This document shows positions 22,175 to 50,938 of a stretch of 64,000 nt of DNA, piece after piece. This stretch comes from Lasiodiplodia sp. COLG20 (Eukaryota; Ascomycota; Dothideomycetes; Botryosphaeriales; Botryosphaeriaceae). Positions within the stretch are counted from its first letter, which is position 1. Each line of letters opens with the position of its first letter. The translations under genes and the position numbers were made by a program. The stretch is taken from the NCBI GenBank assembly GCA_009801085.1, contig VNWV01000014.1:62001-126000 (forward strand), in the 5' to 3' direction. The notes below the pieces were generated by a model. It saw only the letters and a list, made by a program, of their open reading frames with translations. It searched no databases and was not told the DNA's origin.

Positions 22175-22185
22175 TCGGCGCCCGA
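22175..22185. promoter_or_regulatory. TCG-N5-CGA site (1 of 2) upstream of dioxygenase
   Basis: TCGGCGCCCGA lies 136 bp upstream of the TauD start codon. It is the exact reverse complement of the second site at 22251-22261 and fits the half-site spacing of AflR-type zinc cluster proteins. Confidence 0.6.
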
Positions 22186-22250
22186 TGGTGAAGCCGTGAA
22201 AGAAGCTTCCTCCAGACATGTCAGGTTACAGACATCTGACCCGTCGGTTC

Positions 22251-22261
22251 TCGGGCGCCGA
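22251..22261. promoter_or_regulatory. TCG-N5-CGA site (2 of 2) upstream of dioxygenase
   Basis: TCGGGCGCCGA lies 212 bp upstream of the TauD start. Together with 22175-22185 it forms a mirrored pair. Confidence 0.6.
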
Positions 22262-23043
22262 TACCCGTAACATCCCCTCTTTCTCTATAAGCCGAAATCG
22301 GGCAGTGAGAGAACATGCGGGGATTCGAATCGCCGTTGTTTATGGAGGGAGGCATTTTCTGCAGCGAATACGGAAGCGAGGTTGCTTTGACGATGGGAGT
22401 ACCTGGTTCTTTCATTTCCCTACCATTTCGCAGCAGAATGCAAGATAGCAAACTCAAGATTCCAGAACTCACACTTCTAAAGCAATACAAGGTATCTACT
22501 GACTTGCAGGTGACAACAAGAGTTTCAAAGGATTTCAGTCTATAGCTCGCGGCTGCTCGCACTATATATACACCATTTCGACTACACATATCTACTCTCA
22601 GATCTGAAAGTGTGTAGGATTTTAATTGCAAGATACGCGTTGTAGTATCGAAGCGTACATCTGAAATCCTACGCAGCTTGAGTTTTTCTTTGGTTGATTA
22701 GAGCACTCTCAAATTGTCTGTACTCCGGAAAGGCAGCATATATCTTATTGAAAATGCCTAACAGTATCTGAATACCAATCTCAATTTTTGCATCCGTGCC
22801 ATGAAATTTTCCAACTGACCCATTCTGAACTTACTCTACAATGGCGCCTCCTTTCTCAGCAGATCGACGTGATCCTTGATACTGACTCAATAACTACGAT
22901 AATCTGCGGTTCCAGGATCAGCACATTTCACCCTGAAAGCACGAGGTGAGCCCTGACAACCCAGCCATCCCAGCCAACTCGCAACCAGCAAAACAACCCA
23001 CAAGCCCTGCATCGAACCACTCCTTCAACCCGCCCATCACAAC
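22262..23043. other. Intergenic region, no gene seen
   Basis: The remainder of the gap between the dioxygenase promoter and the 3' end of the MFS gene. It is AT-rich in the middle (22.5-22.9 kb). Nothing further recognised. Confidence 0.45.
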
Positions 23044-24748
23044 TCACAACCCCACCTCCCCCGACGCATACGGACTCCTCTCCCTCAACCCGGGCCCCCA
23101 AACCCACAGCACCACCGGCGCCGCCACCCCGACCACCCCCGCCACGCCCGCAATCAGCGTGCTGGCCCAGCCGTACCCCAGCGCGCGATACAGCGCGGGC
23201 GCGACTTCGGGAAACACGAAGCCGCCAGCGGACCGCAGCAGGGTCAGCGAGCCCATGGCGGACGCGGCGTAGACGGGGTAGCAGTCGATGACGTACGCCT
23301 GGATGCACTGGTAGCCGACGATGATGCCGGTGCTGAAGAGTGTGACGCCGAGGTCGGGGAGAAGCCAGTGGAGGTGAAATTGGGCGGACCAGCCGTAGAG
23401 GAGTTGGCCGGTTGGCAGGAGGAGGGCGACGGCGAGCATGAGGGGGGCGCGGAATTCGGGGCGGCCGGTGTTGGAGTTGAGGCGTTTGTAGTGGGCGTAG
23501 ATCTGTGCGGGGGTATGGGTGGTTAGTTTATGGGGGTAGAGAAGAGGCGGAGGGAATGGAGTTGTGGGGGAAGTTTGGGGGCGGATGGTGGTGATGGGGG
23601 ATGCCGGGGATGGGGACGGGTGGTGTATCTCTCACCTTGTCGTTTATGCGCCCGCCCACCTGCGACCCGAACGTCAAGCCGGCGGCGATGAAGGCGTAGT
23701 TCAGCGACGCCTTGCGCGGCGGCATGCCGTAGCGCTCCTCCCACAGCGTCTCGAAGGTGGCGATGGTCAGCTGGTTCAGGCCGAACAGGAAGCCCATCAG
23801 CAGCGCCACCGTCTGGATGATGGGCTGCGTGCCGAGCATGAAGAAGGGCCGCTTGAGCTCGCTCTTGAGCGACAGCAGCGTCTTGCCCTTGGCTTCGTCG
23901 ACCTCATCGTCTTCGCTAATGAGGAAGCCCTTCGCGCGCATGTGCTGCTTCTTCCAGCGCAGCAGCACGGGCGGGAAGGTCTCGAGCAGCAAGAAGTAGC
24001 CCAGGACCAGCATTATGAACGCGAAGGTGGAGGCGCTGAAGAAGATCCACCGCCATGATAGCTTTTCGACGATGTAGCCTGCGGCGATGGGGCCGATGGC
24101 GGGCCCGGCGAGGGGGCCGAGAGCGTAGATTGACAGGGAGAGTCCTCGCTCTTCTTTGTGCCAGAGATCGCTTAGCACGCCGGCGCCGATCTGAAATGCA
24201 ACATGTTAGTTGGAAGCTGGAGCAAGCGTTGACGAAAACCACGTACAGACATTGGGCCACTACCACAGAGCCCAGAGATAAAGCGCAAGAGCATGAAGTG
24301 TGACTTGTTTGACACACAACCACAGAGAGTGTTTGTGATCAGGAAGAGAGTGTGTCCAGTGTTGAGCAGCAGTCGCCTGCCGTACACCTCGGAGAGCGGG
24401 GCAACGAGGATAGGCCCAATGCCCCATCCTAGCAAGAAGACGGACATTACCAATTGCACTTCGCCGTCACCGCTGATATTGAGGTCGCGAGAGATCTGCG
24501 TGAATGCCGGCACCACCATTGCTGCGGTGGCCGGGATGATGAGGCCGTAGCAAGACACAACTATGGCCACGGCCCACTTCTTCTCGGTATGCCATGCTTT
24601 CGGATCTTCCTTGCCCACCAGCGTGAGAGGATCTGTCTGAGCGGTTGTCAGTGATCTATCTCAGTGATTGATGCGTACAGGCGTTTCTTACCACGTAGCT
24701 CTGGCTCTCAAGGAGCCTCGTGCGTTCATCGGGAGTTGCGGCCGTCAT
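23044..24748 (-). CDS. MFS transporter (DHA1 drug/H+ antiporter type), 1 of 2
   Basis: Exons 24748-24692, 24636-24247, 24190-23636, 23502-23044 (486 aa). Twelve hydrophobic segments fit the two six-helix halves. A motif-A-like loop LSEVYGRR follows the second helix, GSGPMSIGAGVLSDLW marks the start of helix 5, and PLAGPAIGP is a typical antiporter motif C-like stretch. The central loop is charged (EDDEVDEAKGK). The family exports drugs and small acids by proton antiport at the plasma membrane. A variant of the shared promoter motif lies 130 bp upstream, so export of the cluster product is the simplest role. Confidence 0.9.
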
Positions 24749-25193
24749 TATCAGGAAGTGTTTCAATTCTTGGCTAAGGGACAGAGACGTTCCACAGAAG
24801 GAGCATATGTGCTGCCGTTTAAAGCAGCTTTGTCAACGGATTGGAAAATGAAACGTCGAAGTTGCCCAATTCGGCACTCGGCGTCCGGGAGGCGACGGCG
24901 AGTCATGGTCGCGGTGCCTGGTGGCCGGACGGGCCTCGGTCGCCTTCGCCCAACAGATTGCAGCTCCTTCCAATGAGAGACTTGTCCATTTGCAATGCCA
25001 TGGAGGTAATTGGTGGTGCAGCTCGATCAGATAAGCTGATTCTGAGGTTTTCAGCTATTCAGACTGTAGTCAACGACAAATTCATGTGGACATGGAAAGC
25101 ATTGCGGCAGGCGAGTTTTCAGTTCAATGGGGATTAATTGCACAATATCGTGCATGTATCACATTGTACATAAATCATCCTACACATCCCATG
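24749..25193. other. Intergenic region upstream of MFS gene
   Basis: Contains the variant motif at 24878-24888 and otherwise nothing recognised. The 3' end of the SMP-30 gene borders it at 25194. Confidence 0.5.
24878..24888. promoter_or_regulatory. Variant TCG-N5-CGG site upstream of MFS gene 1
   Basis: TCGGCGTCCGG lies 130 bp upstream of the first MFS start codon. With two preceding bases (ACTCGGCGTCCGG) it matches the divergent CAD/SMP-30 promoter site at 11 of 13 positions. Confidence 0.5.
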
Positions 25194-26510
25194 CTAATAC
25201 AGCGCCGGCCCCCTCAACCCCAGCCTAATCCTCGCCACACCCCCCTTCCCAACCGCCCACAACTCATCCAACCCCGGCCCCGCCCACGCGATATTAATCA
25301 CCGTAAAATTCGTCTGCACCAGCACCACCGGTTCTCCCTCCGGCGACAACACAATCACCCCGCCCCCCGTCCCCGCAACAACATACCCATCCTCGGACAC
25401 TTTAATCCCATCCGGCACCATCTGCATGCTCTGGTAGAACGGCCGCTTGTTGCGCAGCACCTTCCGCACGGGATCGACGTCGTACGCGTAGACGGACCGC
25501 TTGCCCGTGCTGTTGTACTGGATGGGCGGCGCGGGCGAGACGGCCGCGTCGATGACCGTCGAGCCGGCGCCCGTATCCGTCAGGTACAGCGTGCGGCCGT
25601 CGGGCGAGAACTGCGCGCCGTTCGGCTCGCGCAGTGTGTCTTCGACGACCGTCACCAGGCCGCTGGACGGGTCGAAGCGGTAGGTGGCCGGGTTGAGCTG
25701 CGGGGCGGCGGCGTTGAGGCGGACGGCGCGGCCGTAGTCTGTGTGGCGGATTGTTAATGGGGGGTAATGGTATGTCTTTTGGGAAAGCTGCGCACCGTTG
25801 TCGGTAAACCAGATGTGGCCGTCGGCGTCGATGTCGAAGTCGTCGGCGCCGTTGAAATAGTAGCCGTAGTAGTTGTTGAGCAGGGCACGGGATTCGCCTG
25901 AGGTGGCGTTGAGGGTGTAGATGCCCGGGCGGTAGCTGCGGCCGCCGAAGTCGTCGCCGCCGAGGGTGGAGAAGTAGATGAGGCCGTTGCGGTAGCGGGC
26001 CCCCGTGGCGCCGTAGATGGGCGGGTTCGCCGTCTTCTCGCGCAGCACGGGCGGGTCGGCATTCAGGTCGACGGCCAACTGCGCGAAGAAGCGATGCTCC
26101 AGCCGGGCGAAGTACAGCTCGTTCGTCTCGGGGGAGTAGACGGGGGCTTCGTGCGAGAGCATGCCTTTGGTCGTGAAGATGAAGTCGACGGCCGGCGCGG
26201 GCCCGAGCACGTGGCTGCCACGGCTTTCGTCCCAGACGACGAAGTCGGCATCCTGCACGTGGCGGAAGCTCGGCTCGTGCGGCATGTTGGTGGAGCGGAA
26301 GGTGTCGGCGTGAGCGAGGTCGTTGGTGACGGGCCGCTCCCAGTCGCCTCGGATCACGGCCCCTCGATTGCGGATGCAGACGATTGCGGGGAACGAGTAG
26401 CCGCCGCTGCATGGCGCCGCGAGCGGGCTCTCATCGAGCTCGAGGGGAACCTGCTGCGATGCTGCCAGAAGCGCAGCAGAAGCGAGCAGTGGAACAGTCA
26501 GGGGACGCAT
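25194..26510 (-). CDS. SMP-30/gluconolactonase-family lactonase, predicted secreted
   Basis: Exons 26510-25796 and 25738-25194 (419 aa). A 57 nt in-frame intron (25795-25739; branch TTAAC, acceptor CACAG) is inferred because removing it restores the family motif IWFTDNDYG. The start at 26510 gives a short Arg-containing leader and a hydrophobic stretch ending in Ala-Ser, a good signal peptide. Beta-propeller signatures are REPNGAQFSPDGRTLYLTDT and PDGIKVSEDGYV. The family opens or forms lactones with a bound divalent metal. It is divergent from the CAD-like gene across 200 bp holding the shared motif, so it probably acts on a lactone or hydroxy acid made by that pathway, perhaps after secretion. 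Confidence 0.88.
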   Translation of the reverse strand: MRPLTVPLLASAALLAASQQVPLELDESPLAAPCSGGYSFPAIVCIRNRGAVIRGDWERPVTNDLAHADTFRSTNMPHEPSFRHVQDADFVVWDESRGSHVLGPAPAVDFIFTTKGMLSHEAPVYSPETNELYFARLEHRFFAQLAVDLNADPPVLREKTANPPIYGATGARYRNGLIYFSTLGGDDFGGRSYRPGIYTLNATSGESRALLNNYYGYYFNGADDFDIDADGHIWFTDNGAQLSQKTYHYPPLTIRHTDYGRAVRLNAAAPQLNPATYRFDPSSGLVTVVEDTLREPNGAQFSPDGRTLYLTDTGAGSTVIDAAVSPAPPIQYNSTGKRSVYAYDVDPVRKVLRNKRPFYQSMQMVPDGIKVSEDGYVVAGTGGGVIVLSPEGEPVVLVQTNFTVINIAWAGPGLDELWAVGKGGVARIRLGLRGPALY

Positions 26511-26609
26511 GGTTAACGGCAACAACAACGGAAATGAGACGGGCGGCGGACAAGGCCGCGGTAGCAGAAAGGCGGCGCCAGCATCTTTGAGAAAGTTGTT
26601 GTCGCGACT

Positions 26610-26620
26610 CGGCGGCCGAC
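26610..26620. promoter_or_regulatory. TCGG-CGG-CCGA site central to SMP-30/CAD divergent promoter
   Basis: TCGGCGGCCGA lies 100 bp from the SMP-30 start and 91 bp from the CAD-like start. The 13-mer ACTCGGCGGCCGA, in inverted orientation, recurs in the FAS beta/PrpD divergent promoter. Confidence 0.7.
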
Positions 26621-26710
26621 ACGCGAGAGGGCGACACTTAAGAGCGGTGACAAAGGAGGACAGGGGGCCAGGCCGGAACAGAAGCCAGAGAGACGCGCAA
26701 ACAAGGCAAG

Positions 26711-28386
26711 ATGAAGCACCAGCTGGAGACCGAGGTCGAGGGTGATGGCACGACGGAGCAGCTGGCGCGCTGGATCGCGGGGCTGAAGGCTGATGACGTG
26801 CCACCGCGGGTGCTGGACCGGGCCAAGCACCTGATCCTCGACGGCATCGGCTGCGGTCTGGTCGGTGCGCGCGTGCCGTGGTCGGACAAGATGCTGCATG
26901 CCGTGAGCGCCTACGAACCTGACGGGCCGTGCAGCGTCATCGGCACCACCAAGGTACTCCCTTTTTCTCACCACTTCTACTCCTGCTGACATGCCACGTG
27001 CAGCGCTTTGGCCCTCTCGCCGCCGCAATCCTCAATGGCTCGTTCGTCCAGGCCACCGAGCTCGACGACTACCACAGCGGCGCGCCCCTGCACTCGGCCA
27101 GCATCGTGGTCCCTGCGCTGCTGGCCGGCGCCGAGTCGATCAACGCTGCCGGCGCCCGTGTCACCGGCCGAGATCTGCTCTTGGCTGCTGTCGCCGGCTT
27201 CGAGACCGGCCCGCGCGCCGGCCTGGCCCTTTACGGCCCGGACATGCTGACCCGCGGATGGCACTCCGGGCCAATCTTCGGTAGGAGATGCCGAGATCTG
27301 TGCGTGACGATAATGCTGACTGCGCATAGGCTGTCCCGCTGCTGCTGCGGCTTGTTCCCGTCTGTTTGATCTCGGTGTGCGCGAGACGGAGAGTGCGTTG
27401 GGTATTGCTTGCACCCAAGCTGGTGCTCTGATGAGTGCACAGTATGAGGGCATGATCAAGCGCGCTCAGCATGCATTCGCCGCTCGTAATGGCCTGTTCG
27501 GCGCTTTATTGGCTCGCGGTGGCTACGAGGGCATGCGCAAGGTCTTCGAACGACCCTACGGTGGCTTCCTGGCCATGTTCAGTGCTGGCAACGAACGCAA
27601 TCCACCATGGAAAATCCACGAGGTACGTCTTCGCTGAATGATGAAAGTTCCAGCAAGTGAAGCTGAATCATCAGGTTGTCGCTGGCCTCGGGGAGATCTG
27701 GCACACCGAGCTGATTCGGATCAAACTATACGCATGCGTTGGCGGCAGTCACGGCCAAATCGAGGTTCTCGAAAAACTACAGAACCAATACCCAGACCGC
27801 TTCACGCTGGATAAGCTGCACAGCATCAAGAAGATTGACACCTACCTCAGCCATGCCATTTACGCCCATGATGGCTGGGTTCCTGAATCCCGTCCTCTCA
27901 CTGAGACCGGCGGTCAAATGAATGCCGCTGTACGTAAACATCTGCATTTTCACTGATGCAACACAAGCTGACATTACACAACAGTACATCGGCGCCGTCC
28001 AGCTCACCGACCGCCAAGTCCTCCTCGAGCAGTTCAGCGCGGCAAAGCTTGACGATGACCTGGTCTGGGAACTGATTGGCAAGACCGAGTGCTTCCACGA
28101 TCCCGAATTCGACAAGCCCAACCAAGTGGCTGGCTGCCGTGTCAGGATTACCTTTGACGATGGCTTCACCGTTGAGGAGTCGACGCCCTGGCCCAAGGGC
28201 TACGACCCTCCCATCTCCAACGAGGATATCCGCACCAAGTGGCGCAAGTTGGCCTCCTCCGTCACTGATTCTGACCGCATGCAGAAGATTGAGGACCTAA
28301 TTCTCGGCTTGGATACTGCGGATGACACTGCTATTTCTAAGCTCGGCGAGTTGTTGTCTCTGCCGGTCAAGAACTCGATGGCATGA
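26711..28386 (+). CDS. Cis-aconitate-decarboxylase-like enzyme (MmgE/PrpD family)
   Basis: Exons 26711-26953, 27004-27280, 27330-27622, 27675-27929, 27985-28386 (489 aa, the length known for the Aspergillus terreus CAD). The sequence follows that enzyme closely in pattern: LILDGIGC, GARVPWS, ATELDDYHS with APLHSASIV (active-site Asp and His region), ALGIACTQA, KRAQHAFAARNG, GGYEGM, and IKLYAC followed by a His. CAD converts cis-aconitate to itaconate. Beside a PrpD-like dehydratase and FAS beta, an alkyl-aconitate to alkyl-itaconate step is the best guess, but plain itaconate production is possible. No mitochondrial presequence is evident, so it is probably cytosolic. Confidence 0.92.
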
Positions 28387-29012: not shown

Positions 29013-30702
29013 TCAGTTCTTATTCTCCGCCGTCTTGGACTTCAAGCGGATCTGATGACCAAACTTGTAGAACAGCACAGGAATAGGAATCATAGCAATC
29101 GCCAGGAACGCCAGCAAACTGCTCGCCCAATCGACCCCAAGCCGGTGATACATAGCCGGTCCAAACAGCGGGAACCCCGCGCCAAAAAACGACCGCACAA
29201 ACGTATTCGCCCCGATCGCGCTATTCGCCGTGCTCATATACGTATCGATGATGTAGTTGAAGCACTGCACAAACACCATATACATCCCCATAGCCACGGG
29301 GACGCTCCCGACAATCTGCCCCGCCCAGTGGATATCCGGCCGCGACGTCCAGCCGAAGATGAACAGGCCCACGGGAATCAGACACCCGCCGGCGAACATC
29401 AGCGTCAGGCGGTTCTCGGGCACAACGACGCCGCCGGCCGCGCGCACCTTGGCGACGAAGCGCGTGCGCGTGTGGGCGATGACGACGGCGGCGCCGAGCA
29501 GCACGCCGACCGACATGCCTAGGTAGGCCAGCCCGCTGACGCCGAGCGCCCAGTGCCGCACCTCGCGGAAGGCGATGGGGTAGGAGACGAAGATTAGGTA
29601 GAGGATGCCGTAGACGAAGGCTTGGTAGGTAGTGATGAGGAGGAGGATTGGCTCGGTGATGAGCATTCCTGTGCGCTTGGTCAGTTTCGCGGTCACAGGG
29701 CATGGTTGGTGATGGTGGTGTTGTGCCACACGACGTACTGAACGACCGCATCAGGTAAATCTGCACAATGGCCTTCGGCCCCACGGCCTGCCCGTCGTAC
29801 TGCGAATGCGCCTTCACATTCCCCGTCTCCCTCCGCACCCTCTCCGCCTTCCGCCTCAGCAGCGTCGGCGCGTGCGTCTCGGGCAACCCCACCGCGCACA
29901 GCACCGTCACCGCGCCCCCAAAAATACACATCAACCAGTGATTCCACCTCCACCCGAGATAGCTCGCAGCGACAAAGTTCCCCATGACGGGCGCGACGAT
30001 GGGGCTGCCGAAGATGGTCCCGATGCACGCCGCCATGGCCACGCCGCGCTGCACCGGGTTCCAGATGTCGACCAGCCCGCCGCCGACGATGGAGAGCGGC
30101 GCGGCGCCGAAGACGCCGGAGAGGAAGCGCCCGATCAGCGCCGTTTGGATGTTTTGCGCCAAAGCGACGGGGATGCAGAAGATGGTGAAGAGCAGCATGC
30201 CGAAGGTCGTGGGCCATTTGCGGCCGACGCGCTCTGAGATGGGGCCCCAGACGGGGGGGCCGATGGTGTAGCCCTGGGATGGAGACGCGTTGGTGAGATG
30301 GTGGGTTCGGCATTGGCAGTGGGTGTGGCTGGAGGGGATTGGTGGGTCTCAAGGGGAAGGGTTGCTATTGCTCACCACAAGGAAGAGGCTGATGCCAAGC
30401 GTGATGACGATGGTGCTGGCGCCGAACTCCTCGGCCATCAGCGTCGAGCCGCTGCTGTAGATGCTGCTCGCGATGCACGTCGCCAGGTTGCCGGCCACCC
30501 AGATGAAGGTGATGAACAGCTTCCGCGCGAACGAGAAGTTCTGCGGGTTGTGCGGGTCGCTTTCCCCATCCCACGTCACCAGCGGTCCATCGTCGAGCGC
30601 CGCCTCCTCCGTCTTGGAGTAGTCGGTGGACGGCGCAGGGGTTGCGGCCGCGCTTGACTCCAGGTCCTTGCTGGCTGACGTTGGACTCTGTTCTGACGAC
30701 AT
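29013..30702 (-). CDS. MFS transporter (DHA1 type), 2 of 2
   Basis: Exons 30702-30376, 30273-29739, 29668-29013 (505 aa). It has a hydrophilic Ser/Ala-rich N-terminus, then WDGESDPHNPQNFS, a conserved pre-helix motif in fungal polyamine/drug antiporters, and the loop ISERVGRK. GGGLVDIW and GTIFGSPIVAPVMG mark helices 4-5. The second half has RMLITEPILLL and FNYIIDTYM. It is only distantly similar to the first MFS gene. A shared-type site lies 355 bp upstream, so both exporters seem to belong to the same regulon, perhaps for product and precursor or for self-protection. Confidence 0.9.
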
Positions 30703-31288
30703 TGCTCAGGAGTGGGATTGTGCGGATTCACTCGAAACACAAAAGGATATTTCAACAAGGGATTGGACGAAGCATCGAGGATCCGGAGCTTGGTTTCCCT
30801 TGGCTCTTTTTCTTTTCGGGCGGAGCACTGTCGCTTTAGGAAATGCAGCCTACGTTCGCTGATAAATCACGGCGCCAGGGCAGGCCCTTACCTGGCGGCT
30901 GCCATGTCACTTTGAGCGGCGGGATGGGCGCGACGCCCCTTGGCCGTGCAGTGAAACGCATCCAATCATGGCCGAAACGCGGCCTAGGGTGCTATCGGCT
31001 GTCGCTCCACTTGATAACCGGCGTGCGGCGGCGCAGTAGTGTTCCTGCTGCGGCGTTCGGCTGCCGATGCCCGACCACGACACGAAAACCCGATGATCGA
31101 CGCAGCGAACCGTCGAATTGGAGATCTCTGCTTCCAGTGTCTTCGACAAATCCATTCGACCGGAATATTGACTACTGAACGCTCAAATCGTGGTACTGCT
31201 GTTTCCCTACAGGTGTGACGAAATGCAATTAATCCCATAAAAAAAATAAGAAGAGCAAAAATAGGCAGTCGTTGCGAAATGAAAGACC
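30703..31288. other. Intergenic region upstream of MFS gene 2
   Basis: Between the MFS 2 start and the 3' end of the AflR-like gene. It contains the site at 31057-31067; no gene seen. Confidence 0.5.
31057..31067. promoter_or_regulatory. TCGG-CTG-CCGA site upstream of MFS gene 2
   Basis: TCGGCTGCCGA, 355 bp upstream of the second MFS start, differs only in the three-base spacer from the other sites. Confidence 0.6.
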
Positions 31289-32383
31289 TCATCCCCCTAA
31301 TAACCGTATATGTTTCGTGACACGATCCACCTCATTCCTCGCAAAGCGGTGTAAGAACTGACACTGTCGTCTGCAACGACTGCCCGTCCTCCCCACAGCA
31401 CCACCAGTCTGCCCCAGCTGATCCTCCCCCCGTTGCCGCGCTTTGGCCTGCAACCGGTCCAGCAGCGCCGTTATCTTCCTGACGTCGATCAGGATCATCT
31501 GACACTTCAACGCCAGCTGGTCCTCCACGTTGACGACGTACGATCCGAACTGCACCGACGACTGGCACGGCATGTACAAGGCTTCGTGGTACGTGGTGAT
31601 GAGCTTGTTGAGGCAGAAGTAGACGGTGAAGTCGAACGACGGGTGGTGCACCGCGTCGCATTCGATCACCGTCCGCACCACGTTCAGCAGCGCCCGGTTG
31701 AGCCGGAGGACGTGGTCCAGCGTTTTTCCCTCGACGGGGCTTTGCTGCAGATCGCGCAGCGTCCGGTTGAGCACGTCCAGACAGCTGGAAGAGGACTGAA
31801 ACGACGAGCATCCGTGTTTGGTGTTATGGCCCTCTCCTCCACGCGCTCGTGGCATTTCCAGGACTGGGGCTGGCGCCAGTACGCTGGCTGGTAGCTCTTG
31901 TGCTGGGGTGTCGGGATGCAGCTGTGGGACGGCCGGTCCAAAGAAGCCAATGTCCACCGGAGAGAAGGAGGGCTCGAAGTCAGTGAACTGGGAGAAGTCG
32001 AACACGGAGATTTCAGATGGCACGCGCTCGTCTGGACTGCTCGCCAGAGTGCTGGCGTCCGTCGCAGAGGTGCGCGGTGTGTGAACATCGTGGATTGTTG
32101 ACGATTGAGGTGTTTGGAACTGCTCTGGCGGAGTTGGGTACGGCTCGATCTGCGGCGGCGGCGGCTGCTTGGGAGTCCGCTTCCTCGGCATTGATAGGCT
32201 CCGCTGGCAGGTGAAGCTGCGCGCTGTGCACCGGACGCAGTTCTGGTGGTCCTCCTCGTAGACGCACCGCGTTTTGGCGTGGTGACACCGATCACAGGAT
32301 GCTCTCAATCGCCGAGTGCCCTTCTTTCCCCCCTTGACCATGCTGTGTGAAGGTTCGATCAGCTTCCAGACTAGAGTCGCCAT
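31289..32383 (-). CDS. AflR-like Zn2Cys6 regulator, candidate cluster-specific activator
   Basis: Intronless, 364 aa from 32383 or 350 aa from the second in-frame ATG at 32341. The zinc cluster is CDRCHHAKTRC followed by CVRCTARSFTC. A Pro/Thr-rich linker is followed by a region resembling the aflatoxin-regulator domain: CLDVLNRTLRDL, LDHVLRLNRALLNVV and DFTVYFCLNKLITTYHEAL, then VNVEDQLALKCQMIL. AflR itself binds TCG-N5-CGA sites. Such a site lies 217 bp upstream of this gene (auto-control) and upstream of the dioxygenase, both MFS genes, and both divergent enzyme pairs. I infer it is the pathway activator. The last ~40 residues are Arg-rich and less typical. Confidence 0.82.
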   Translation of the reverse strand: MATLVWKLIEPSHSMVKGGKKGTRRLRASCDRCHHAKTRCVYEEDHQNCVRCTARSFTCQRSLSMPRKRTPKQPPPPQIEPYPTPPEQFQTPQSSTIHDVHTPRTSATDASTLASSPDERVPSEISVFDFSQFTDFEPSFSPVDIGFFGPAVPQLHPDTPAQELPASVLAPAPVLEMPRARGGEGHNTKHGCSSFQSSSSCLDVLNRTLRDLQQSPVEGKTLDHVLRLNRALLNVVRTVIECDAVHHPSFDFTVYFCLNKLITTYHEALYMPCQSSVQFGSYVVNVEDQLALKCQMILIDVRKITALLDRLQAKARQRGEDQLGQTGGAVGRTGSRCRRQCQFLHRFARNEVDRVTKHIRLLGG

Positions 32384-32599
32384 GGTGAGAGTTCGAATAG
32401 TACCCTTTCTTCGGCCTGAGGATTCGTGATGCGGGGGGCCTCGCTTAGGTGTGGACTATCAAGAGCTTGGGTGGGCCCAATTGCAGCAGCGTGCAAGGGG
32501 TCTGAGAAAGCTGCTGGAATATGTGAACCAGTGAAGAGCCTCTGTCGTGCCTGATGGCGTCGGATCACGCTGCCCGAGATCATTTGTTAGGCGAAGATC

Positions 32600-32610
32600 T
32601 CGGCGGCCGA
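32600..32610. promoter_or_regulatory. TCGG-CGG-CCGA site upstream of AflR-like gene
   Basis: TCGGCGGCCGA is identical to the site in the SMP-30/CAD promoter and lies 217 bp upstream of the regulator's first ATG, suggesting autoregulation. Confidence 0.65.
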
Positions 32611-33087
32611 GACCCGAAGCGGCATTGAGCGGATGGATGATTTCCAGGAAGATGGTGTCGGCACCTTGAGTCGAGTGTAGTGAAACATGTCAACACTTCT
32701 TTCCTATTTTCCTCTTCGGAGTTGATAAAATGTAGTTCTAATCAGTGGATGTTTGACTCAGTACTAAAGAGAGATTCTTGTGCATTGACTCTTGACTCTA
32801 CAATATCAATTTTCATCAATCCTGTATTTTCGCTGGTGAGGAGTTCTTGATTTCTCTAGAGTTGGTGTTTGAGAAGTGACTTCAATAGCACTTTTTCCCC
32901 CCGAGACTGTATGGATCTAGTCTGGGATGGTCCAACACTAAAAATAGTGCCAGTCGCTGCTGAATCTTGAAAGATGACCTTTCCGTCTTGATATATTTTC
33001 GAGCAAGTTATAAGCAGCGAGAGACAGGTTGCATTGTTTATACTTTCAATGACCTTCTCTACCAGAGAGTATTCCTCGAAGAAGATA
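32611..33087. other. Intergenic, AT-rich
   Basis: No gene seen; an AT-rich stretch leading into the decayed AMP-binding sequence. Confidence 0.45.
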
Positions 33088-41734: not shown

Positions 41735-42826
41735 TCAGAAAGCCCCACTCTTGCTGATGAACTCTTTCCAAGTCGTCAGCTTATCTTCGAGGATATCCTG
41801 GCTCTCCTTCAAGCTCTCGCCGTTGTAATACCCCGGGTTCTCGATGAAGAGATGGTTCTCGAGCATCTCCTGCGCCATGAATTCCGGAAAGAAGCTCTTG
41901 TACTGCTCAGCCGGGACCTGCACGAACCGCGTCTTCTTACCCGTCACTTCCTCCAGCTCGGCTAAGATGCGCTTTGGGGTGTAGTAGTCAACCGCACCGT
42001 ATACGCGCTTGCCAAGCAGGTTGTCCCGATTCTTGATGATAGCCTTAACGAATTTGCCTAGTAGCACCAGATGTTAGCATTAGCTATCTCGATGAATAAA
42101 CGAAAGGGAAGGAGAAAAAAAAAAAAACGGGAGATTGGAGTGTGCTCTAAGAAGAAATAAGCCACACTTACCGGTATCCTCCGCAATATCTACTAGCGGA
42201 AACTTCGCCTCCTCTCCCACAGGATACGCCAGCGTCAACACGCCATCATCACCCTTCTGCAACATCTCCGCGAAGTTGCTCATAAAGTACCCCGGTAGGT
42301 AGAACGTCGCCGACAACCCGCTCTTCAGCGCGTACGCCTCGATCTCGGCCTTGCCGTCGAAGTGCGGCACGTGCGCCAGCCGCCCGCCGGTCGCCTGTGT
42401 CACGGACAGCAGGGACGAGAAGATCAAGTGCTGCACGCCGGCGGCCTTGGCCGCGTCGACGACGTTCTTGCCTTGCGTGACCTCGACGGCATGGTCCGCC
42501 GTCTCCCAGTAGTTGGTCACGAGGAAGACGGTGTGCGAGCCCTGGACGGCCTGCGTGAGGGAAGGGCTGGAGTTGAGGTCGGCCTGGGGGGGAGGTTAGT
42601 TTTGCGGAAAGGAGGAGTCGGGATTGCGTTGCTGATGCGGAGGGGCACGTACGGTTTTCACCTCGACGCCCTTTGCGGCAAGGGCTTGCGCGGCTGGCTT
42701 GGATGTGTCCCGCGTGATACCTCGGATTCGGAAGGCCTTGGAAAGCGCGGAGTCGGCGAGGACATGCTTGATGACGGAGCCGCCCTGATTGCCAGTGGCA
42801 CCGAAGACAGTGAGGAGCTTCGACAT
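41735..42826 (-). CDS. NmrA-like family protein (NAD(P)-binding Rossmann fold)
   Basis: Exons 42826-42653, 42583-42172, 42057-41735 (302 aa). The N-terminus has the dinucleotide motif GATGNQGGSV, then RGITRDTSKPAAQ, VFLVTNYWE and HLIFSSLLSV. The Tyr-Lys pair of catalytic SDRs is not evident, as expected for atypical members that sense redox state or bind partner regulators (NmrA, HSCARG). Some family members are enzymes, so function is open. The second intron contains a run of about 14 A residues. Promoter not linked to the cluster motif. Confidence 0.86.
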
Positions 42827-43558
42827 GGTGTGGTGTAGCAGATGAGAATGTGGTGTGCTTAGTGGAAGGACTGAGGAGGTTGAATGCGCTGTAGATTGCA
42901 CTTGTAGTACTTAGGAAGAGAGCAGCCTCCTCTTAAATAGACATCGCTCTTTGGTGGCGCCGGACTCAAGTTGACATGTCAATGATCCTATTCAAGGCTT
43001 ATACATCAATTTCAAAGCGATCACCGACCAATAGTGATAAAACATCTTGGGTGTCCACAATGTTTGAGACGCACGGACCGACACTTACATCTTGGCTGCC
43101 ATAATCGGTTAGTCTCTTATTCCTCATCTAATTGGAGTCGTCCTTGTCGCGGCGTTTAAATTTCTCTCATCCAACATTCACACGTCATACGATGTCATTG
43201 ACGTTTCGAAAAGTGGTTGTGTCATTTTCAAACCGCAGTTAAGACTGCTACACTGCAATGTGCATGCCATGAAAGTTATAAAACACACAAGCTTAAATAG
43301 CTAAACAAAAGCATACTCGATATACATGGTTTAGCACGACAATGGTGCATGCTCAGACGATCTGAGATAGTTTACTTCGGCCGCACTCGGCTCGGTTCGG
43401 ACCGGAGGATTGGTCATCTCGGGCTTCGCGCTTGGGCGCCTCCGACACACTATCAATCACCGGTGGCAAGCAATCCAGTAGTCCATACCAAAACGTCCGT
43501 AGCATCTTACGTATGCGATAGGCGAGTGACCCACCCAAGCGAGTTGCCAAGAGAACGC
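42827..43558. other. Intergenic region, no gene seen
   Basis: AT-rich upstream region of the NmrA gene and flank of the GTPase relic. Nothing else recognised. Confidence 0.45.
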
Positions 43559-43756
43559 GTCACGCCTGGCTTCAATAATACTACCAAAACTAACCCTAAA
43601 GTGCTCGGAGAAGATGCAGCTTTTCAAGAAAGATCATTTCGAGAGAGTATCAGACTCGGCGGTATCATTTACCTGCAGAGGATTTCCAATACCCGCATGA
43701 AGGGGTCCACTTTAGCCAGCCTGCGGATGTTCAAAAAGCTCATAGGGAACGATGCA
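43559..43756 (+). pseudogene. Relic of a fungal AIG1-like P-loop GTPase
   Basis: A 66-codon stretch matches the middle of fungal AIG1/GIMAP-like GTPases: TPGFNNT (normally TPGFDDT, the G3/Walker B region), then about 25 residues later LGGIIYLQRISNTRMKGS and LRMFKKLIGNDA. No P-loop upstream and no C-terminal half is visible in the flanks, so only a fragment remains. These GTPase genes are often found singly in accessory regions of ascomycete genomes. Confidence 0.5.
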
Positions 43757-44259
43757 TCATGCATGCCAGAATGTTCTTATCGCGACTACTATGTTGGAGT
43801 CAATCAGCAAAGATAAAGAGAGATGATAAGCAGTATTGCTTAGCAATCTTAACTTTTGGGGCGGTATATGGGTGTTATAAAGAAGACGTGTTGCTGCGCG
43901 TCACGATTATTAATTTCGTTTCGAATATTTGACGAAGTGAAGTTGAGTTTGCACGCAAAGCAATGCGTTTCATTAGCTCTCACGTCTTTACACAGCCTCA
44001 CGAAATCAAATAGAGGCATACGGAGAAAGCTACAAAAAAGAGAACCACAAGAGCAGGCGTACTAGTCTTACTCTATCCCACTCTTAGTAGCACTGTGTGA
44101 GGAAGAGAGGATCAGCGTTTTGCGGGCGTTTATATTGAAATTCGTAGATCTAGAACAACTCGAAAGAGAAAGATACAGAACAAAAAAAGAGGTATACACA
44201 TAAACGCCACCCCCAGTCCAATCCCCACATCTAGCAACATTCTTTAAATACACTGACTG
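43757..44259. other. Intergenic region, no gene seen
   Basis: 3' flank of the FAS beta gene; AT-rich, no gene. Confidence 0.45.
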
Positions 44260-47200
44260 TTAAGCAGCAACAACCTCCGCACTCCTCCCCACCAACCTCC
44301 CCAAAACCGGACTCCCCGTCACACGCCCCACCAACCTCACATACTCCTCATCCAACGCAAACGGCTTCGCCGTCACATTCGGCACGTACCTGCCCACAAG
44401 CTTGCCCGGATCGACATCGTCAGCCGCGATGCTGCGCCGCAGGAAGTTGCGGTACGGCTGCACGCCGTGCAGCAGGTGCGACGAGTGGAAGGGGACGTCG
44501 ATGCCTTTGAGCGGAATCGTCGCGACGCCGCGCTCGAGGTCGATGGGGCGGGGGAGCGTGGACGCGGACTGCACGTGTTGGGTGATGAGGGATTGGAGGG
44601 CGGGGCGGGCGGTGGGGGTGAGGAGGAGCGAGGCATCTTTGGCGTGGGAGAGGTGGGTGAGGAGGGTGGTGAGGGCGTGGAGGTTTTCGAGCTGTGTGGG
44701 GGGAGGTGGCGTGTTAGTTTCGTGGATGGGCTGGTGGTGGGGAGGGGGGGGAAGGGGGGCTTACCTTGCCAGCGCAGACGTACTGCTCACCTTCGACGTT
44801 GAGGTTGACGATCTCGAGCAGCGAGCCCGACGTCTCGGCGATCAAGCCGACGACTTCCTTCAGCATTTCCTCGTTGAACCCTGGTAGCAGCAGCATCCAC
44901 GCGTTAGCCTGTCTTCTCCCCACCACCAATACGCAAAGCAAAAGCAAGGAGCACTTACACCTCCCCACCCTCCCCGGATTCGCCGCCGCCATCCCGTACT
45001 CCGTCCGCCCAAACTCATCCCTCTCCATCGCAACCTGCATCGTCAAGCCGCGGTAAAAAATGACCCTGACCAGCGTCTCGACGGGCAGGAAGTCCGCCAT
45101 CGCCGCGAGGGCGCCGTACTCTCCCAGCGAGTGACCCGCGAACGGGGCGCCCTCCTGCACGAGGCCGCGGGCGCGCATGTCGAGGAAGGTGGCCATCTCC
45201 TGCAGCAGGATGGCGGGCTGGGCGAACTGGGTCGAGAACAGCAGGCCGCGGGGCTCGTAGAAGGTGTAGGACTCGGAGTCGGGGGTGAGGTCTTTCAGCA
45301 TGGGCTCGGTGACGGTGGTGCGGCCGTGGGGCAGGACTTTTTCGATGGTCATGGCGAGGTAGTTGTCGCGGATGCGGTGGCCCTTGGGCCCGCCGAAGGA
45401 GATGGTGAGGGACTTCGGGTTCGTGCGGACGATGTCGAGGATGGACCAGCCTGCGGGCAGCGTGTCAGCCAGACAACCAAACAACCAGCCTCCAACGAGA
45501 AAAAAAAAAAAAGAAAAACGATAGGGGAAGAACTCACCATACATCTCCCTCAACGCACGATCCACATCATCCCACACTTTCCTCGCCACCTCGCTCTCAG
45601 CATACAACCCCATCCCCATCCCCACCCCCTGACTCCCCTGCCCCGTAAACACATACGCCGTCCTCACCTGCTCGACTTCCGCCACGCCCTCCAACACCGC
45701 CTCCCCGCTCTCCGCATTCACCACCGTCACACTCACCACCATCCTCCCCGCCGCCATGGCCGTATGCGCGAACCGCACCCTCAACCGATCCCCCGGCAAC
45801 ACCATCCCCACAAACCGCGCCTCCCAGCTGTGGAACCGCGCAGCCGCGTCTTCCTCGACGGCCAGATGCTGCAGCACGGCGCGCACGACGGCCGACGTGT
45901 ACATGCCGTGCGTGATGGTGCCGGGCAGGCCGGCGTACGCGGCGAAGACGGGCGCGACGTGGATGGGATTGGTGTCGGCGGAGAGGCGGGCGTAGCGGTC
46001 GTTCGTGAGCGGCACGCGGAACTCCTTTTCGCTCTCGTCAACCCAGCCTGGCTCCGTGAGCGGAACCGCGGCGCCGACGGGCGTGGCGGCTTTGCGGGTG
46101 AGGTAGTCGAGGACGGGGTCGCCGAGGCAGTCACGGGCGGCGCAGGAGACGGTGCCGATGCGGATGGAGTCGGCGGAGATGGTGCCGGTGGTGGAGAGGG
46201 TGGCGAGGTTGGTGCGGTCTTTCCAGGTGGTTTCGGACGACAGGTCGAAGGTGAGGCTGCGGTTGGCGAGTGTTACTGCCGGATCGTCCAGCTTCAACCA
46301 CGGCTGGGCTTTCAGGACGGCCTCGTCGATGGCGGTGGCGAGGCGCAGCTGGAAGGGCGGGTGCGCGGTGCGCTTGAAGGTGTTCTCAAAGTCGGAGAAG
46401 GACCCCTTGAACAAAAAGTCGGACGCGACGGCGACCAGCGGGACGCCGTCCCTTGCAATCACGGCGCGCACGACGACGGATCGGCCCGACTTCTCGATGG
46501 CGACGGCCTGCACTGTCGAGCTGGCTGTGACAACATCTCCCACCTTCAATCTGGCGGACGAGAGGTGCTCGAACTTGTTGGAGCGGTGCACTAGGCGTAG
46601 GATGTCGCCTTGGACCTCGGGCAGCATCAGCGGCGCGACCAGCGGCTCCCATGCCAGCACGATGCACAAGTCCAACGGGACGTCGCCTGATGAGGGGATG
46701 GTGAGCTCGAGGTCGGGCAGGGCGGCGTGCACGCAGTAGGCCAGGTCGCGGACGGCCTGCTCGTCGACGACGCGCTCAGGGCCGGTGAAGGTCGAATGCA
46801 CCGTCTTGCCCGCAATGTCGGTGTTCGGCAGCCACAGGCGGCGGTAGAAGTCCTTCACGGTGGCATCGTGGGCCTCCGAGTCGGAAAACAGGCTGCAGTG
46901 CTTGCTGCTGGGCATGTAGACGTACTCGAGCGAGTAGTCGACGTCGTCGCCGGTAGCAGAGGGCGCCCACATGGTGGCGCGCACGCGCGGGCCGTAGACG
47001 AGGGAGACGCTGCAGAGCGGGCGGCCCGTTGTGGCCGAGGTGATGGAGATGGCTTCGTTGGCCTGGTCCAGCGCCAGCTTCTCGCCGGGTCGCAGCTGAA
47101 GGATGCGGTGGAAGGGGTTGGCTGTTCTGACGTGGTCCTGGACGACGTAGCCGTCGGCGAAGAGCCGGCGGATCCAGCCGCTGGTGCGCTCTGCCATGAA

Positions 47201-50200
47201 GCTGAGCCATTCGTCTGAGGCCGGTGGCTGGCCGCTAGTCAGCTGGAAGATCTGCTTCCCGGCCTCTGTGGTGAACTGCACGCCCGGCAGCACCTCTTCA
47301 ACTGCGGACGAGGAATTCTGTTCTTTCGTTTCTGCCAGCGGAATGTCAGCATCATTGGGATAGAAGGCCTTCTTCACCATCTCCACCAGGCCTCCAGTGA
47401 TGCCATCTAGAATCTCCTTGGCACTCTCATCAGCACGCTGCGAGTAGCGCACCGACACGGGACTCTGCAAGATGCACACCCGGCCAGCGTCCTGGCCAAC
47501 AACGGCATCGACGTTCTCCGACTGCCACAGCGAGTCCTTCTTGAAGAAGTACTCAAAGTCCTCGTCGAGGGCCGGGATGAAGTTGACAGGCTTCATGGTG
47601 CGCGACTTGCAGCGGCGGACGAACCACCGCGCATCCTCGGGATGCAGCTTTCGCGTCTCCGCCCCGGGACACCACGCAGCAACGGCACCGGCATCCCGCG
47701 TCGCCGCCACGAGCGCCTCGGTATCGCTGCTGGCCGGCAGCTTGGCCGTCTTTGCCTCTGGATCCAGCAGCCTGTCCCGCGCGCGCTGCGCCACATCCCG
47801 CAGCAGCACCGCGTACGACGGATCGACAAAAGCCTTCCGGTGCGGGAGGTACGTCAACTCGACCAACCTGCCCAGCACCCTCGCGTACGTCATATCCGCA
47901 ACCTCCGCCGCCGGTCCTCCCGCCTCATCGACGGCGAACCACGGCTTCGCGAAATCCGCATTGAGCCGCGGGATCAGCGTATCCCGCATCCTCACCAGCG
48001 CCGCCGCCCTCTGCGCACGGGGGAGACTGAACACCGTCTTGTCCAGCTCAGCCCAGAGCTTCACGCCGCGCGTGGCCAGCTTGTGAATCGGCTGCCCCAT
48101 CTCCGACTGCACCGTCAGCACGCCGCCGGCGGGCCTCTCGTACGACCTGTCCCAGTCGTCCTCCCTCTCCAACCCCGGGGCAGCGACGATCAACTCGCGG
48201 CTCTCGGGGGACGTGTGCGCCTCGCGCGCCACCATCATGCGGCTGCCGAGCAGCACGCCGTCGAACGGCATGGCGGCCGCTCTACCATACGGCTCCCGCG
48301 TCGCCCACTCGCCGCTGAGGTACGGGAATGCGCCTTCGGCATCCCCGAACCCGCTGCCCGCGACGAGCACGACGTTGCTGCGCTTGCGGATTTCGGCGTA
48401 CAGGTCGAGCACGGGCTCGTGGAAGTCCTCGTACGAGTGGTGCCCGCCGCCGCGGCCGCCCGTCCACTGCAGGACGACGGGGAAGCGCGGGTGCGCGTCG
48501 GCGATGGCGAGGACGTCGCGGATGGCGGCGGTCGAGCCGGGCTTGAAGCCGATGTGCTTGATTCCGAGGGTCGTGATGTACGTGGATGCGATGTCCGGCG
48601 AGGGCACGCCGGCGCCGATGGTGAGGCCGTCGATGGGGGCGGTGCCGCGGCGCTGTAGGTCGGCGAGGAGCGTGATCTGCCAGCGCATGGCTTCGGGCGA
48701 GGCGTAGATGAGGTTGACGGTGATGCCGCGGCCGCCGGGGACGGAGGCGGCGGCCTTTTCGATGGCGGCGCTCATGCTGGACGGCTCGAAGTAGCCGCCG
48801 CCCGCCATTTCGATGTGGTACCCGGCGTTCATCACCGCCGCGACGAAGTCCCAGTGCACCGTCGTCGGCGTCATGCCCGCCGTGAAGACGGGCGGCGCGC
48901 CGAGCACGCGGCTGAGTCTGGTGTCGAGCTGGACGGCGCCCGTCGTCGCGTCCCGGACCAGCCGCGGGCGGAACTGCTCGCTCCACGACGCGGCGTGCAG
49001 CTTGTGCGCCGGCAGCTGCGCGGCGAAGAGGTCGACCTTTGTGGATTGGGTGTCGTCCGGCACGGCCAGCGTGGCGGCGTTGACGACGATGACGCCCTGG
49101 CCCTGCTTGACCATGTCGACGACGTCGCCGAGCCGCCCGCTGGCCAGCATGACGACGTGCGTGGCGCCGGGCAGCTGCAGCGCCGCTGGCCAGTCGACCG
49201 GCTCCAGGGCGATGGCGTCGATGAGCGTGTCGGTGGCGGAGCGCTCCGTGATGCTGCGCAGGTCGCGGCCGTCCTTGCTGTGGTGCACCGGCAGGCCCAT
49301 CTTCGCCGCCACCAAGCCGCAACCACCCTCCCTCATCCTTTCTTTGACCTTGACCGCGGCGTCGGCCAAGTACGGGCTGTGGAACGGCGCGCTGATAGGC
49401 AAAAACGACGCGCGCACAACCTTCTTGCGCTTCCGGAACGGCACGCGCGCCTGGTCGACGCCGTCCTCGGCCGCGATCGTCCTGACGCGCAAACACACGC
49501 CGCGCAGCGCCCGTGCCGGGCCCGACAGCGTAAAGTTCTCCGCCGTGTTCCGCAGCGCGACGTAAACCTTCCCATCCTCAGGCAAGTCCTCGTTGCACCG
49601 CGCCACGAGCTCCTCCACCTCCTTGCGCCGCAGCCCGCGCACGCTGAGCATCATGCCCGGCCGCCCCTCGCCGGCGTCCACGCTGTCCTGCACGTCCGCC
49701 GCCGCCAGCGCCGAGCGCGGCGCCGCCGTGTGGCTCTCGAAGCCGAGCCAGAACAGCAGGCGCACCGCGTCGCGCGCCGCCGCGTAGAACTCGTCCCACG
49801 TGCTGCATTGGGCCACGGCCGCCGCGATGACTAGCCCTTGCGAGTGGCCCGTCACGCCGCGCAGCAGGGCGCGCAGCTCGCCGGGCGTTTTGGCGAGGAC
49901 GCGGCAGGTGACGGCGTAGTGCGCCAGCCCGACGAGGCCGATGAGGGGGAAGCTGACGGCCGCGCTGGCGAGGAAGGATGGGTCGGGGACGGCGGATTCG
50001 TCGGTGAGCCAGGTGGGCAGGTCGATTTCGCGGCCCGCGTAGAAGCCGTAAGTCGAGGGGTCGCGGGAGAGGGAGGAGAGTTCGGCGGAGGCGGCGGAGA
50101 GGAGCGGGGTGAGGAGCGGCGAGTAGGTGGAGATGAGGCTGCGCAGCTCGGTGAAGCAGGCTGGGTTCGCCGCGCCTTGGCCGCCGAAGATGAGGTGCAG

Positions 50201-50614
50201 TTGCTTGGAGCCGGTGGCGGCGGCTGAAAGGAGGGCGCTCGGCGTGGGAGCGGGTTGCTTGGAGCAGCGGGACAGCGCGTCGTAGTAGCTGCGGAGCAGA
50301 TCGCGCCCTGCCTGCACGCCGCTTGGTGATGAGAGGGCGAGGGTGTGGATGTCGGTGGTGGAGAGGAATTGGGATTCGAAGGCGCTCAAGGCGGCAGTGA
50401 GGACCGAGGGAGGTGTTGAGGACGACTCCAGATACGCAACGAAGCGTAATGCCAGCTCACCTGATGATGAGGGCGGCGTGTCGTCGCTGGGCGGACTGGC
50501 TTGGAAGGCATCGCGATGGCCGATCAGAGAAGCCAGCTGCGTCGAGTCGACTTCGAGGGCGCACTTGATGCTCCCAGAGGTGAGATGCAGGGGAGAAGTC
50601 GTGGTAGCCGCCAT
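44260..50614 (-). CDS. Fatty acid synthase beta subunit
   Basis: Exons 50614-45538, 45450-44959, 44880-44765, 44691-44260 (2038 aa, normal for fungal FAS beta). Domains in order: acetyltransferase with HLIFGGQG (about 145) and GHSQG (about 258); enoyl reductase with AGMTPTTVHWDF (about 578) and GGHHSYEDFH (about 725); dehydratase with THGMYTSA (about 1566); malonyl/palmitoyl transferase with FTGQGSQG and GHSLGEYGALA (about 1800). All catalytic signatures are present, so it looks active. The start at 50614 has an ACC-ATG-G context; upstream in-frame ATGs at 50653, 50668 and 50695 also exist. A partner alpha subunit (KS, KR, ACP) is not in the window. It is divergent from a PrpD-like gene, which suggests a dedicated secondary-metabolite FAS supplying an acyl starter; a housekeeping role cannot be excluded. 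Confidence 0.95.
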
Positions 50615-50938
50615 GGTGTTGTCTGTTGTGGCACAGCCGAGATCCAGACTCATGCAGGCACTAGACATTATCAGTATTTTGCTACCAGTACACATACCTT
50701 ATCCAGGACGGCGGCGATGCAAAGCCGTGGAGGCGGAGGAGTGCTGCCGAGCTCGCCCACAACTTCCGCCGCGCTCGGCCGCCGAGTCCCGAATGCGTAG
50801 CCGCCGCCCGCCAACTACACTGACCACGCCGACCGTTCGAACTTTTGTTAAACAAGCCCCAATCATGCTGCTGCGGTGAGCAACAAACCACCTATCAATT
50901 CCACATTTTCCCTGCCACTGCCACCATTCCTCCCCGCC
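50615..50938. promoter_or_regulatory. FAS beta / PrpD-like divergent promoter
   Basis: 324 bp between the two start codons. It holds the shared site at 50775-50785 almost exactly mid-way (161 and 154 bp from the starts) and several GCCG/CGGC runs around it. Confidence 0.65.
50775..50785. promoter_or_regulatory. TCGG-CCG-CCGA site in FAS beta/PrpD promoter
   Basis: TCGGCCGCCGA is the reverse complement of the sites at 26610-26620 and 32600-32610; identity with the CAD/SMP-30 promoter extends to 13 bp. Confidence 0.7.

What the first reader, a model, noticed from the sequence alone, without database searches (positions are those of the whole stretch)
22175..50785. One 11-bp motif marks every gene of a presumed alkyl-itaconate pathway
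Seen: TCGG-NNN-CCGA occurs at 22175, 22251, 26610, 31057, 32600 and 50775 (a variant at 24878), each in the upstream region of the TauD, MFS 1, SMP-30/CAD, MFS 2, AflR-like and FAS beta/PrpD genes. I found none upstream of the P450, esterase, Zn2Cys6, NmrA, SDR or FAD monooxygenase genes. Known: AflR-type zinc clusters bind TCG-N5-CGA. Inference: the AflR-like protein at 31.3-32.4 kb controls a regulon that outlines the pathway across an 11 kb gap.
Basis: partly seen in the sequence, partly recalled or inferred. Interest (0 to 1): 0.9.

Follow-up and report, generated by a model that had tools for sequence, protein, structure and literature searches.

The report
Multi-half-site operator marks fungal alkylcitrate cluster
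In a plant-associated fungus, one repeated DNA address tag sits in front of all ten genes that we assign to an oryzine/sporothriolide-like natural-product pathway, including two just outside the window, and the tag is longer than first read, with up to four copies of a known regulator's half-site in regular 7-base steps.

Summary
The motif is real and far above chance. The window has six exact TCGGNNNCCGA sites (26610 is really 26609), all in promoters. The genome holds 801; dinucleotide shuffles of the promoters average 0.05 and 0 of 2000 reach six. The 11-mer is the core of a longer element, CGG-N3-TCGG-N3-CCGA-N3-CCG. Exact copies occur twice in 43.5 Mb, both here; of 10 copies at up to one mismatch 4 are here; all 8 hits at up to two mismatches in 114 kb lie in the cluster's promoters. 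Alkylcitrate synthase and FAS alpha, missing from the window, lie 3-11 kb past its right end, and their shared promoter carries the element. A matrix trained on five window sites ranks the two unused promoters 6th and 7th in 114 kb. Ten genes, seven promoters. The gene set resembles oryzine/sporothriolide clusters more than a plain alkyl-itaconate route. The 11-mer is known as the proposed GliZ/SirZ site; one paper search for the longer form found none. That the AflR-like protein binds it is inferred.

The parts
20776..22039 (-). TauD-type Fe/2-oxoglutarate dioxygenase gene (at least two exons)
   Evidence: PF02668 E 8e-22 on exon 21241-21816; ATG at 22039; C-terminal exon 20776-21105 assigned by eye, 3' limit approximate
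22175..22185 (.). exact TCGGNNNCCGA without flanking half-sites (TauD promoter, second site)
   Evidence: 4 mismatches to the four-half-site pattern
22244..22268 (.). four-half-site element, TauD promoter
   Evidence: exact match to CGGN3TCGGN3CCGAN3CCG
23044..24748 (-). MFS transporter 1
   Evidence: PF07690 E 2e-22 on frame 23531-24205; ATG; 3' limit approximate
24871..24895 (.). four-half-site element, MFS1 promoter, 2 mismatches
   Evidence: rank 6 with a matrix not trained on it
25194..26510 (-). SMP-30/gluconolactonase-like lactonase; N-terminus looks like a signal peptide (by eye)
   Evidence: PF08450 E 2e-22; ATG
26602..26626 (.). element in the divergent SMP-30/CAD promoter, 2 mismatches (outer half-sites TCGC/GCGA)
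26711..28386 (+). cis-aconitate-decarboxylase-like gene (several exons)
   Evidence: PF03972; the two solved structures matched by the exon tested are IRG1; ATG; 3' limit approximate
29013..30702 (-). MFS transporter 2
   Evidence: PF07690 E 1e-23; ATG; 3' limit approximate
31050..31074 (.). four-half-site element, MFS2 promoter
   Evidence: exact match
31289..32383 (-). AflR-like Zn2Cys6 regulator
   Evidence: AflR 23.6 bits and Zn_clus 18.5 bits, both just below cut-off; five relatives found; start at 32383 or 32341
32593..32617 (.). element in the regulator's own promoter, 2 mismatches (three of four half-sites)
44714..50614 (-). fatty acid synthase beta subunit (start codon uncertain)
   Evidence: nine FAS1-type and related families in one 1994-aa frame
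50768..50792 (.). element in the divergent FAS beta/PrpD promoter, 1 mismatch
50939..52456 (+). 2-methylcitrate-dehydratase-like (alkylcitrate dehydratase) gene
   Evidence: PF03972 and PF19305; four PrpD-type structures E 4e-113 to 2e-95 ahead of four aconitate decarboxylases near E 4e-5; 59% identity to SpoL

Best explanation
A cluster-restricted regulon. The AflR-like Zn2Cys6 protein (31.3-32.4 kb) most likely binds an operator built on TCGG-N3-CCGA with auxiliary CGG half-sites 7 bp to either side, and activates all ten genes of a fatty-acid-synthase-type alkylcitrate pathway, its own gene included, from seven promoters spread over about 53 kb and interrupted by two blocks of other genes. 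Proposed pathway: FAS alpha/beta acyl chain; alkylcitrate synthase; PrpD dehydratase; CAD decarboxylase to an alkyl-itaconate; TauD hydroxylation; SMP-30 lactonisation; MFS export. The product would be an oryzine/sporothriolide-like lactone. Shown: the element, its rarity, its placement and the domain families. Inferred: the binder, activation rather than repression, and the chemistry.
For: Motif counts and shuffles. Among exact palindromes the perfect +2 CCCGA extension is present in 3 of 6 cluster sites and 0 of 795 elsewhere, Fisher 2e-7 before correction for having chosen the extension from these sites. Four-half-site pattern: 2 exact in the genome, both here; 4 of 10 at <=1 mismatch; all 8 hits at <=2 mismatches in 114 kb lie in the seven promoters. 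Promoters not used in training rank 6 and 7 in 114 kb. Citrate synthase and FAS alpha found next to the window. Stretches of about 2 kb at the 5' side of five paralogues (3 of 4 other citrate synthase loci, 2 of 2 other FAS alpha loci; start codons not mapped) have no 18-mer match at <=2 mismatches. Gene set shared with ory and spo (passages of PMC6162547, PMC8403587, PMC10565555). Blocks with the element have 58-66% GC, gaps and flanks 50-52%. In Diplodia intermedia the citrate synthase and PrpD relatives (90% identical) carry consecutive locus tags, as expected if the second gap is not part of the cluster.
Against: No expression or binding data. The longer pattern was derived from these very sites, and the four-half-site form was recognised after the CS/FAS alpha site had been seen, so only the ranking of MFS1 and CS/FAS alpha with the five-site matrix is near to a blind test. 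The sixth exact palindrome (22175) was left out of training and is not in that matrix's top 22. The regulator's two domains score just under Pfam cut-offs. No DNA of relatives could be searched for conservation of the element. Only one SMP-30 gene lies in the cluster, against two lactonases listed for ory. High GC is also seen at the two other FAS alpha loci (0.60-0.61), so GC islands are weak evidence. Three of the five paralogue stretches hold an 18-mer match at 3 mismatches, and one of these a bare palindrome. One four-half-site match at 3 mismatches lies in gap 1 at 35813.
Confidence: 0.78

Rival explanations
1. The regulon is real but the binder is another zinc-cluster protein, for example the Zn_clus/Fungal_trans_2 gene at 39.6-41.5 kb in the gap or an unlinked regulator.
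For: A second Zn2Cys6 gene lies between the blocks. Many fungal zinc-cluster proteins bind CGG triplets (recalled).
Against: That gene sits with a P450 and an esterase, and no element at <=2 mismatches lies in the gap (one at 3 mismatches at 35813). The AflR-like gene is inside the marked block and carries its own element. Only two AflR-domain hits were found in the genome.
Confidence: 0.15
2. The functional site is only the 11-bp palindrome bound by one dimer; the outer half-sites are incidental.
For: The inner pair is the best conserved: exact in 5 of 7 promoters. The outer pair is complete in 3 of 7 (TauD, MFS2, CS/FAS alpha). The exact site at 22175 has no good outer half-sites. GliZ/SirZ motifs in the passages I read stop at 11 bp.
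Against: Three of 6 cluster palindromes carry the perfect extension against 0 of 795 elsewhere; 5 of 6 against 16 of 795 at <=1 mismatch. The two promoters with one broken inner half-site keep outer ones: both in CS/FAS alpha, one of two in MFS1.
Confidence: 0.25
3. Chance in GC-rich promoters.
For: The blocks are GC-rich.
Against: Dinucleotide shuffles of the promoters themselves: 0.047 palindromes expected, 0 of 2000 reach six; 18-mer matches at <=2 mismatches 11 seen, shuffle mean 0.062, maximum 2 in 400.
Confidence: 0.01

Closest known systems
GliZ / SirZ-type site TCGGN3CCGA (gliotoxin, sirodesmin; also viriditoxin promoters)
   Same: Identical 11-bp core in nearly all promoters of one cluster that holds a Zn2Cys6 regulator gene
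   Different: Here the core is flanked by further half-sites in 7-bp register, and the regulator's own promoter carries it (the A. fumigatus gliZ promoter is reported to lack it, PMC4006717 passage)
AflR site TCGN5CGA (aflatoxin; passage of PMC3202775)
   Same: Regulator with a weak AflR-domain match; compatible half-sites
   Different: The loose AflR consensus is not enriched here
Oryzine (ory) and sporothriolide (spo) clusters
   Same: FAS alpha/beta, alkylcitrate synthase, dehydratase, aconitate decarboxylase, Fe/2OG dioxygenase, lactonase; ory also transporters and a regulator
   Different: One lactonase found instead of the two of ory; three blocks separated by other genes; no regulator site mentioned for ory or spo in the passages I read
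akc cluster of Aspergillus niger
   Same: FAS, citrate synthase, dehydratase and Zn2Cys6 regulator akcR (passages of PMC7338620)
   Different: The decarboxylase is unlinked there; the five conserved genes named include no TauD or SMP-30; akcR is described with PF00172 and PF04082

Membership tests
FAS-type alkylcitrate (oryzine/sporothriolide) cluster | dedicated FAS alpha and beta | tested here: met
   FAS beta in window; Fas_alpha_ACP at C6:131798-132336
FAS-type alkylcitrate (oryzine/sporothriolide) cluster | alkylcitrate synthase | tested here: met
   PF00285 at C6:129321-130556; relatives 90% Diplodia intermedia, 68% Hypomontagnella monticulosa; alkyl specificity not tested
FAS-type alkylcitrate (oryzine/sporothriolide) cluster | PrpD-type dehydratase and CAD-type decarboxylase | tested here: met
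   dehydratase 59% identical to SpoL
FAS-type alkylcitrate (oryzine/sporothriolide) cluster | Fe/2OG dioxygenase | tested here: met
   PF02668
FAS-type alkylcitrate (oryzine/sporothriolide) cluster | two lactonases, as listed for ory | tested here: not met
   one SGL gene in the cluster; the next match on the contig is at C6:240135
FAS-type alkylcitrate (oryzine/sporothriolide) cluster | acyl-CoA ligase, as listed for ory | not tested
   not searched for
FAS-type alkylcitrate (oryzine/sporothriolide) cluster | product is an alkylcitrate-derived lactone | not testable with these tools
   needs chemistry
GliZ/AflR-type regulon | shared TCGGN3CCGA-type site in promoters of one cluster | tested here: met
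   exact core in 5 of 7 promoters, one mismatch in 2 of 7
GliZ/AflR-type regulon | in-cluster Zn2Cys6 regulator with AflR domain | tested here: inconclusive
   23.6 bits vs cut-off 24 and 18.5 vs 21; 27.1 bits, over the cut-off, in the genome scan. Of five relatives P0001 and P0002 pass for AflR, P0003 and P0005 for Zn_clus, P0004 for neither; P0001, P0002 and P0004 as predicted lack the zinc-cluster part
GliZ/AflR-type regulon | regulator binds the site | not testable with these tools
   needs in vitro binding

The most novel reading that the evidence does not exclude
The operator is a nested array of up to four CGG half-sites, TCGG TCGG CCGA CCGA in 7-bp steps (outer triplets centred 20 bp apart, a little under two helical turns; half-sites 1-3 and 2-4 each spaced CGG-N10-CCG), bound by two interlocking regulator dimers: a higher-order, high-specificity variant of the GliZ/AflR site that gives a nearly unique address in a 43.5 Mb genome.
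Probability: 0.35. Interest if true: 0.7.

Novelty: new variant of a known kind. Interest (0 to 1): 0.52.

Why it matters
A promoter element this specific lets one draw the borders of a biosynthetic cluster from sequence alone: it leaves out the genes in the gaps and marks two core genes outside the window (which I found by family search, and the element then confirmed). It also links an alkylcitrate lactone pathway to a GliZ/AflR-type control scheme and raises a testable question about how zinc-cluster dimers could share a four-half-site operator.

Tried and rejected
Rejected: TCGN5CGA as the informative motif (not enriched); chance from GC richness; a genome-wide regulon (the reversed control patterns are commoner than the motif at every level tested: 1556 vs 801 palindromes, 92 vs 49 and 1661 vs 1037 for the 18-mer at <=1 and <=2 mismatches on both strands, 378 vs 190 for the four-half-site pattern at <=2). 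Six sites outside the cluster at <=1 mismatch to the four-half-site pattern were looked at only for open frames: 4 of 6 (L056-L059) lie inside a frame of at least 110 aa, 2 of 6 do not; no family search was made, and no pathway gene was recognised by eye.

Led nowhere: tRNA scan with a bacterial code; PDB search with the regulator (no credible match); paper PMC8162735 (sporothriolide pathway) is not held, so spo chemistry is taken from passages of other papers; a paper search for zinc-cluster tetramers listed nothing that I judged, from titles and abstracts, to bear on this arrangement; paper searches on Botryosphaeriaceae or Lasiodiplodia with alkyl citrates listed no report of this cluster by title or abstract.

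Full report
Setting. The window is C6:62001-126000 of a 43.5 Mb, 88-contig genome. Best protein matches are to Botryosphaeriaceae: dehydratase exon 96% to Lasiodiplodia theobromae and 90% to Diplodia intermedia, citrate synthase exon 90% to D. intermedia and 95% over 77% of the query to L. theobromae, so the host is probably a Lasiodiplodia or a near relative (inference; lineage).

Observation. Six exact TCGGNNNCCGA sites are present; 26610 should read 26609. Genome-wide there are 801, that is 0.53 expected in the 28.6 kb span, P(>=6) = 1.9e-5 without correction for choosing the span. I read start codons from six-frame translations and took seven promoters (3,134 bp), six in the window and one beyond it. 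All six sites fall in them; dinucleotide shuffles give mean 0.047 and none of 2000 reaches six. The loose AflR consensus TCGN5CGA is not enriched (18 vs 22.8).

The element is longer. Flanks of the sites showed a further CCGA three bases downstream. TCGGNNNCCGANNCCCGA has three perfect matches in the genome, all in this cluster, and 49 matches at <=1 mismatch, 7 of them here; at <=2 mismatches 1037 in the genome and 11 in 114 kb, all 11 in the seven promoters (8 places, some matching on both strands). Made symmetrical, CGG-N3-TCGG-N3-CCGA-N3-CCG has 2 exact matches in the genome (TauD, MFS2 promoters), 10 sites at <=1 mismatch of which 4 are here, and 190 at <=2; in 114 kb all 8 hits at <=2 mismatches lie in the seven promoters, two of them overlapping in the CS/FAS alpha promoter. 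Four further hits at 3 mismatches lie at 21572, 24936, 35813 and 46825. The symmetrical form was seen after the CS/FAS alpha promoter had been viewed, and all these patterns come from these sites, so their p-values overstate the case. The fairer test: a symmetrised matrix from five window palindromes (one per promoter; the sixth, 22175, left out) puts the two promoters not used in training, MFS1 and CS/FAS alpha, at ranks 6 and 7 of all positions in 114 kb, and a second, 7-bp-shifted register of CS/FAS alpha at rank 8; rank 9 is inside the FAS beta coding sequence. A half-sites-only version puts CS/FAS alpha at rank 5, MFS1 at 6 and the site 22175 at 14; with it, Markov models give 0.0004 or fewer expected sites of the CS/FAS alpha score in 503 bp. 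The reversed control patterns are commoner than the motif genome-wide, so the enrichment is confined to the cluster.

Genes. In the window: TauD, two MFS, SMP-30, AflR-like regulator, FAS beta and two MmgE/PrpD proteins, one matching only IRG1 decarboxylases among solved structures, the other nearest to PrpD dehydratases. Citrate synthase and FAS alpha lie divergently at C6:129.3-130.8 and 131.3-136.9 kb, 3-11 kb beyond the window; the element lies 182 and 322 bp from their start codons. Stretches of about 2 kb at the 5' side of 3 of 4 other citrate synthase loci and 2 of 2 other FAS alpha loci have no 18-mer match at <=2 mismatches; three of the five have one at 3 mismatches, and one of these (L053) is a bare palindrome (start codons there were not mapped). 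Genes in gap 1 (P450, esterase, Zn2Cys6 regulator) have no element at <=2 mismatches. Motif blocks have 0.578, 0.656 and 0.625 GC; gaps 0.509 and 0.509; flanks 0.50-0.52. In D. intermedia the citrate synthase and PrpD relatives are SLS58_010752 and SLS58_010753, so the second gap is probably a later separation or is absent there (inference from tags only). In D. corticola the regulator, citrate synthase and PrpD relatives are all listed with a contig of 332,885 bases, which suggests linkage.

Mechanism. The regulator has a CX2CX6CX8CX2CX6C cluster (by eye), weak Zn_clus and AflR hits and is one of two AflR-domain hits in the genome. I take it to activate all ten genes, its own included. TCGGN3CCGA is the proposed GliZ site, called unproven in 2014 and present for every gli gene but gliZ and gliA (passages of PMC4006717); a 2019 paper on DcGliZ cites it as the GliZ binding site (passages of PMC7022936); it is reported in eight sir promoters (passage of PMC8191991) and marked in vdt promoters (passages of PMC10512231). 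AflR's site is TCGN5CGA (passage of PMC3202775). One search for four spellings of CCGA-N3-CCGA and TCGG-N3-TCGG found no paper; its six hits were for TCGN5CGA alone.

Pathway. [quoted passage not shown] ory is described as sharing the set (passages of PMC6162547). The window set fits except that one SMP-30 gene is found instead of two; the acyl-CoA ligase listed for ory was not sought.

Verdict. Observation confirmed and sharpened; interpretation mostly right on control, incomplete on gene set and product. New variant of a known kind.

Noticed in passing
C6:129321-136920 (window coordinates 67321-74920, beyond the window): Divergent citrate synthase and FAS alpha genes complete the pathway; their promoter has five CGG-type half-sites in one 7-bp register.
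   Followed up: yes
33000-44500 and 52500-66800: Two interrupting blocks of about 51% GC between blocks of 58-66% GC; the first holds a P450, an esterase and a second Zn2Cys6 regulator, the second a carboxylesterase and a P450.
   Followed up: partly
32560-32577: A second, weaker match (2 mismatches to the 18-mer) 40 bp from the main element in the regulator's own promoter, with TCGG-N10-CCGA outer half-sites.
   Followed up: no
9449-10492: NACHT/NPHP3_N-domain frame, and an SNF2-domain frame at 13117-14457; I do not count either to the cluster.
   Followed up: no
C45:1916031-1916330: The only other AflR-domain hit of the genome, much stronger (107 bits); its surroundings were not examined.
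   Followed up: no
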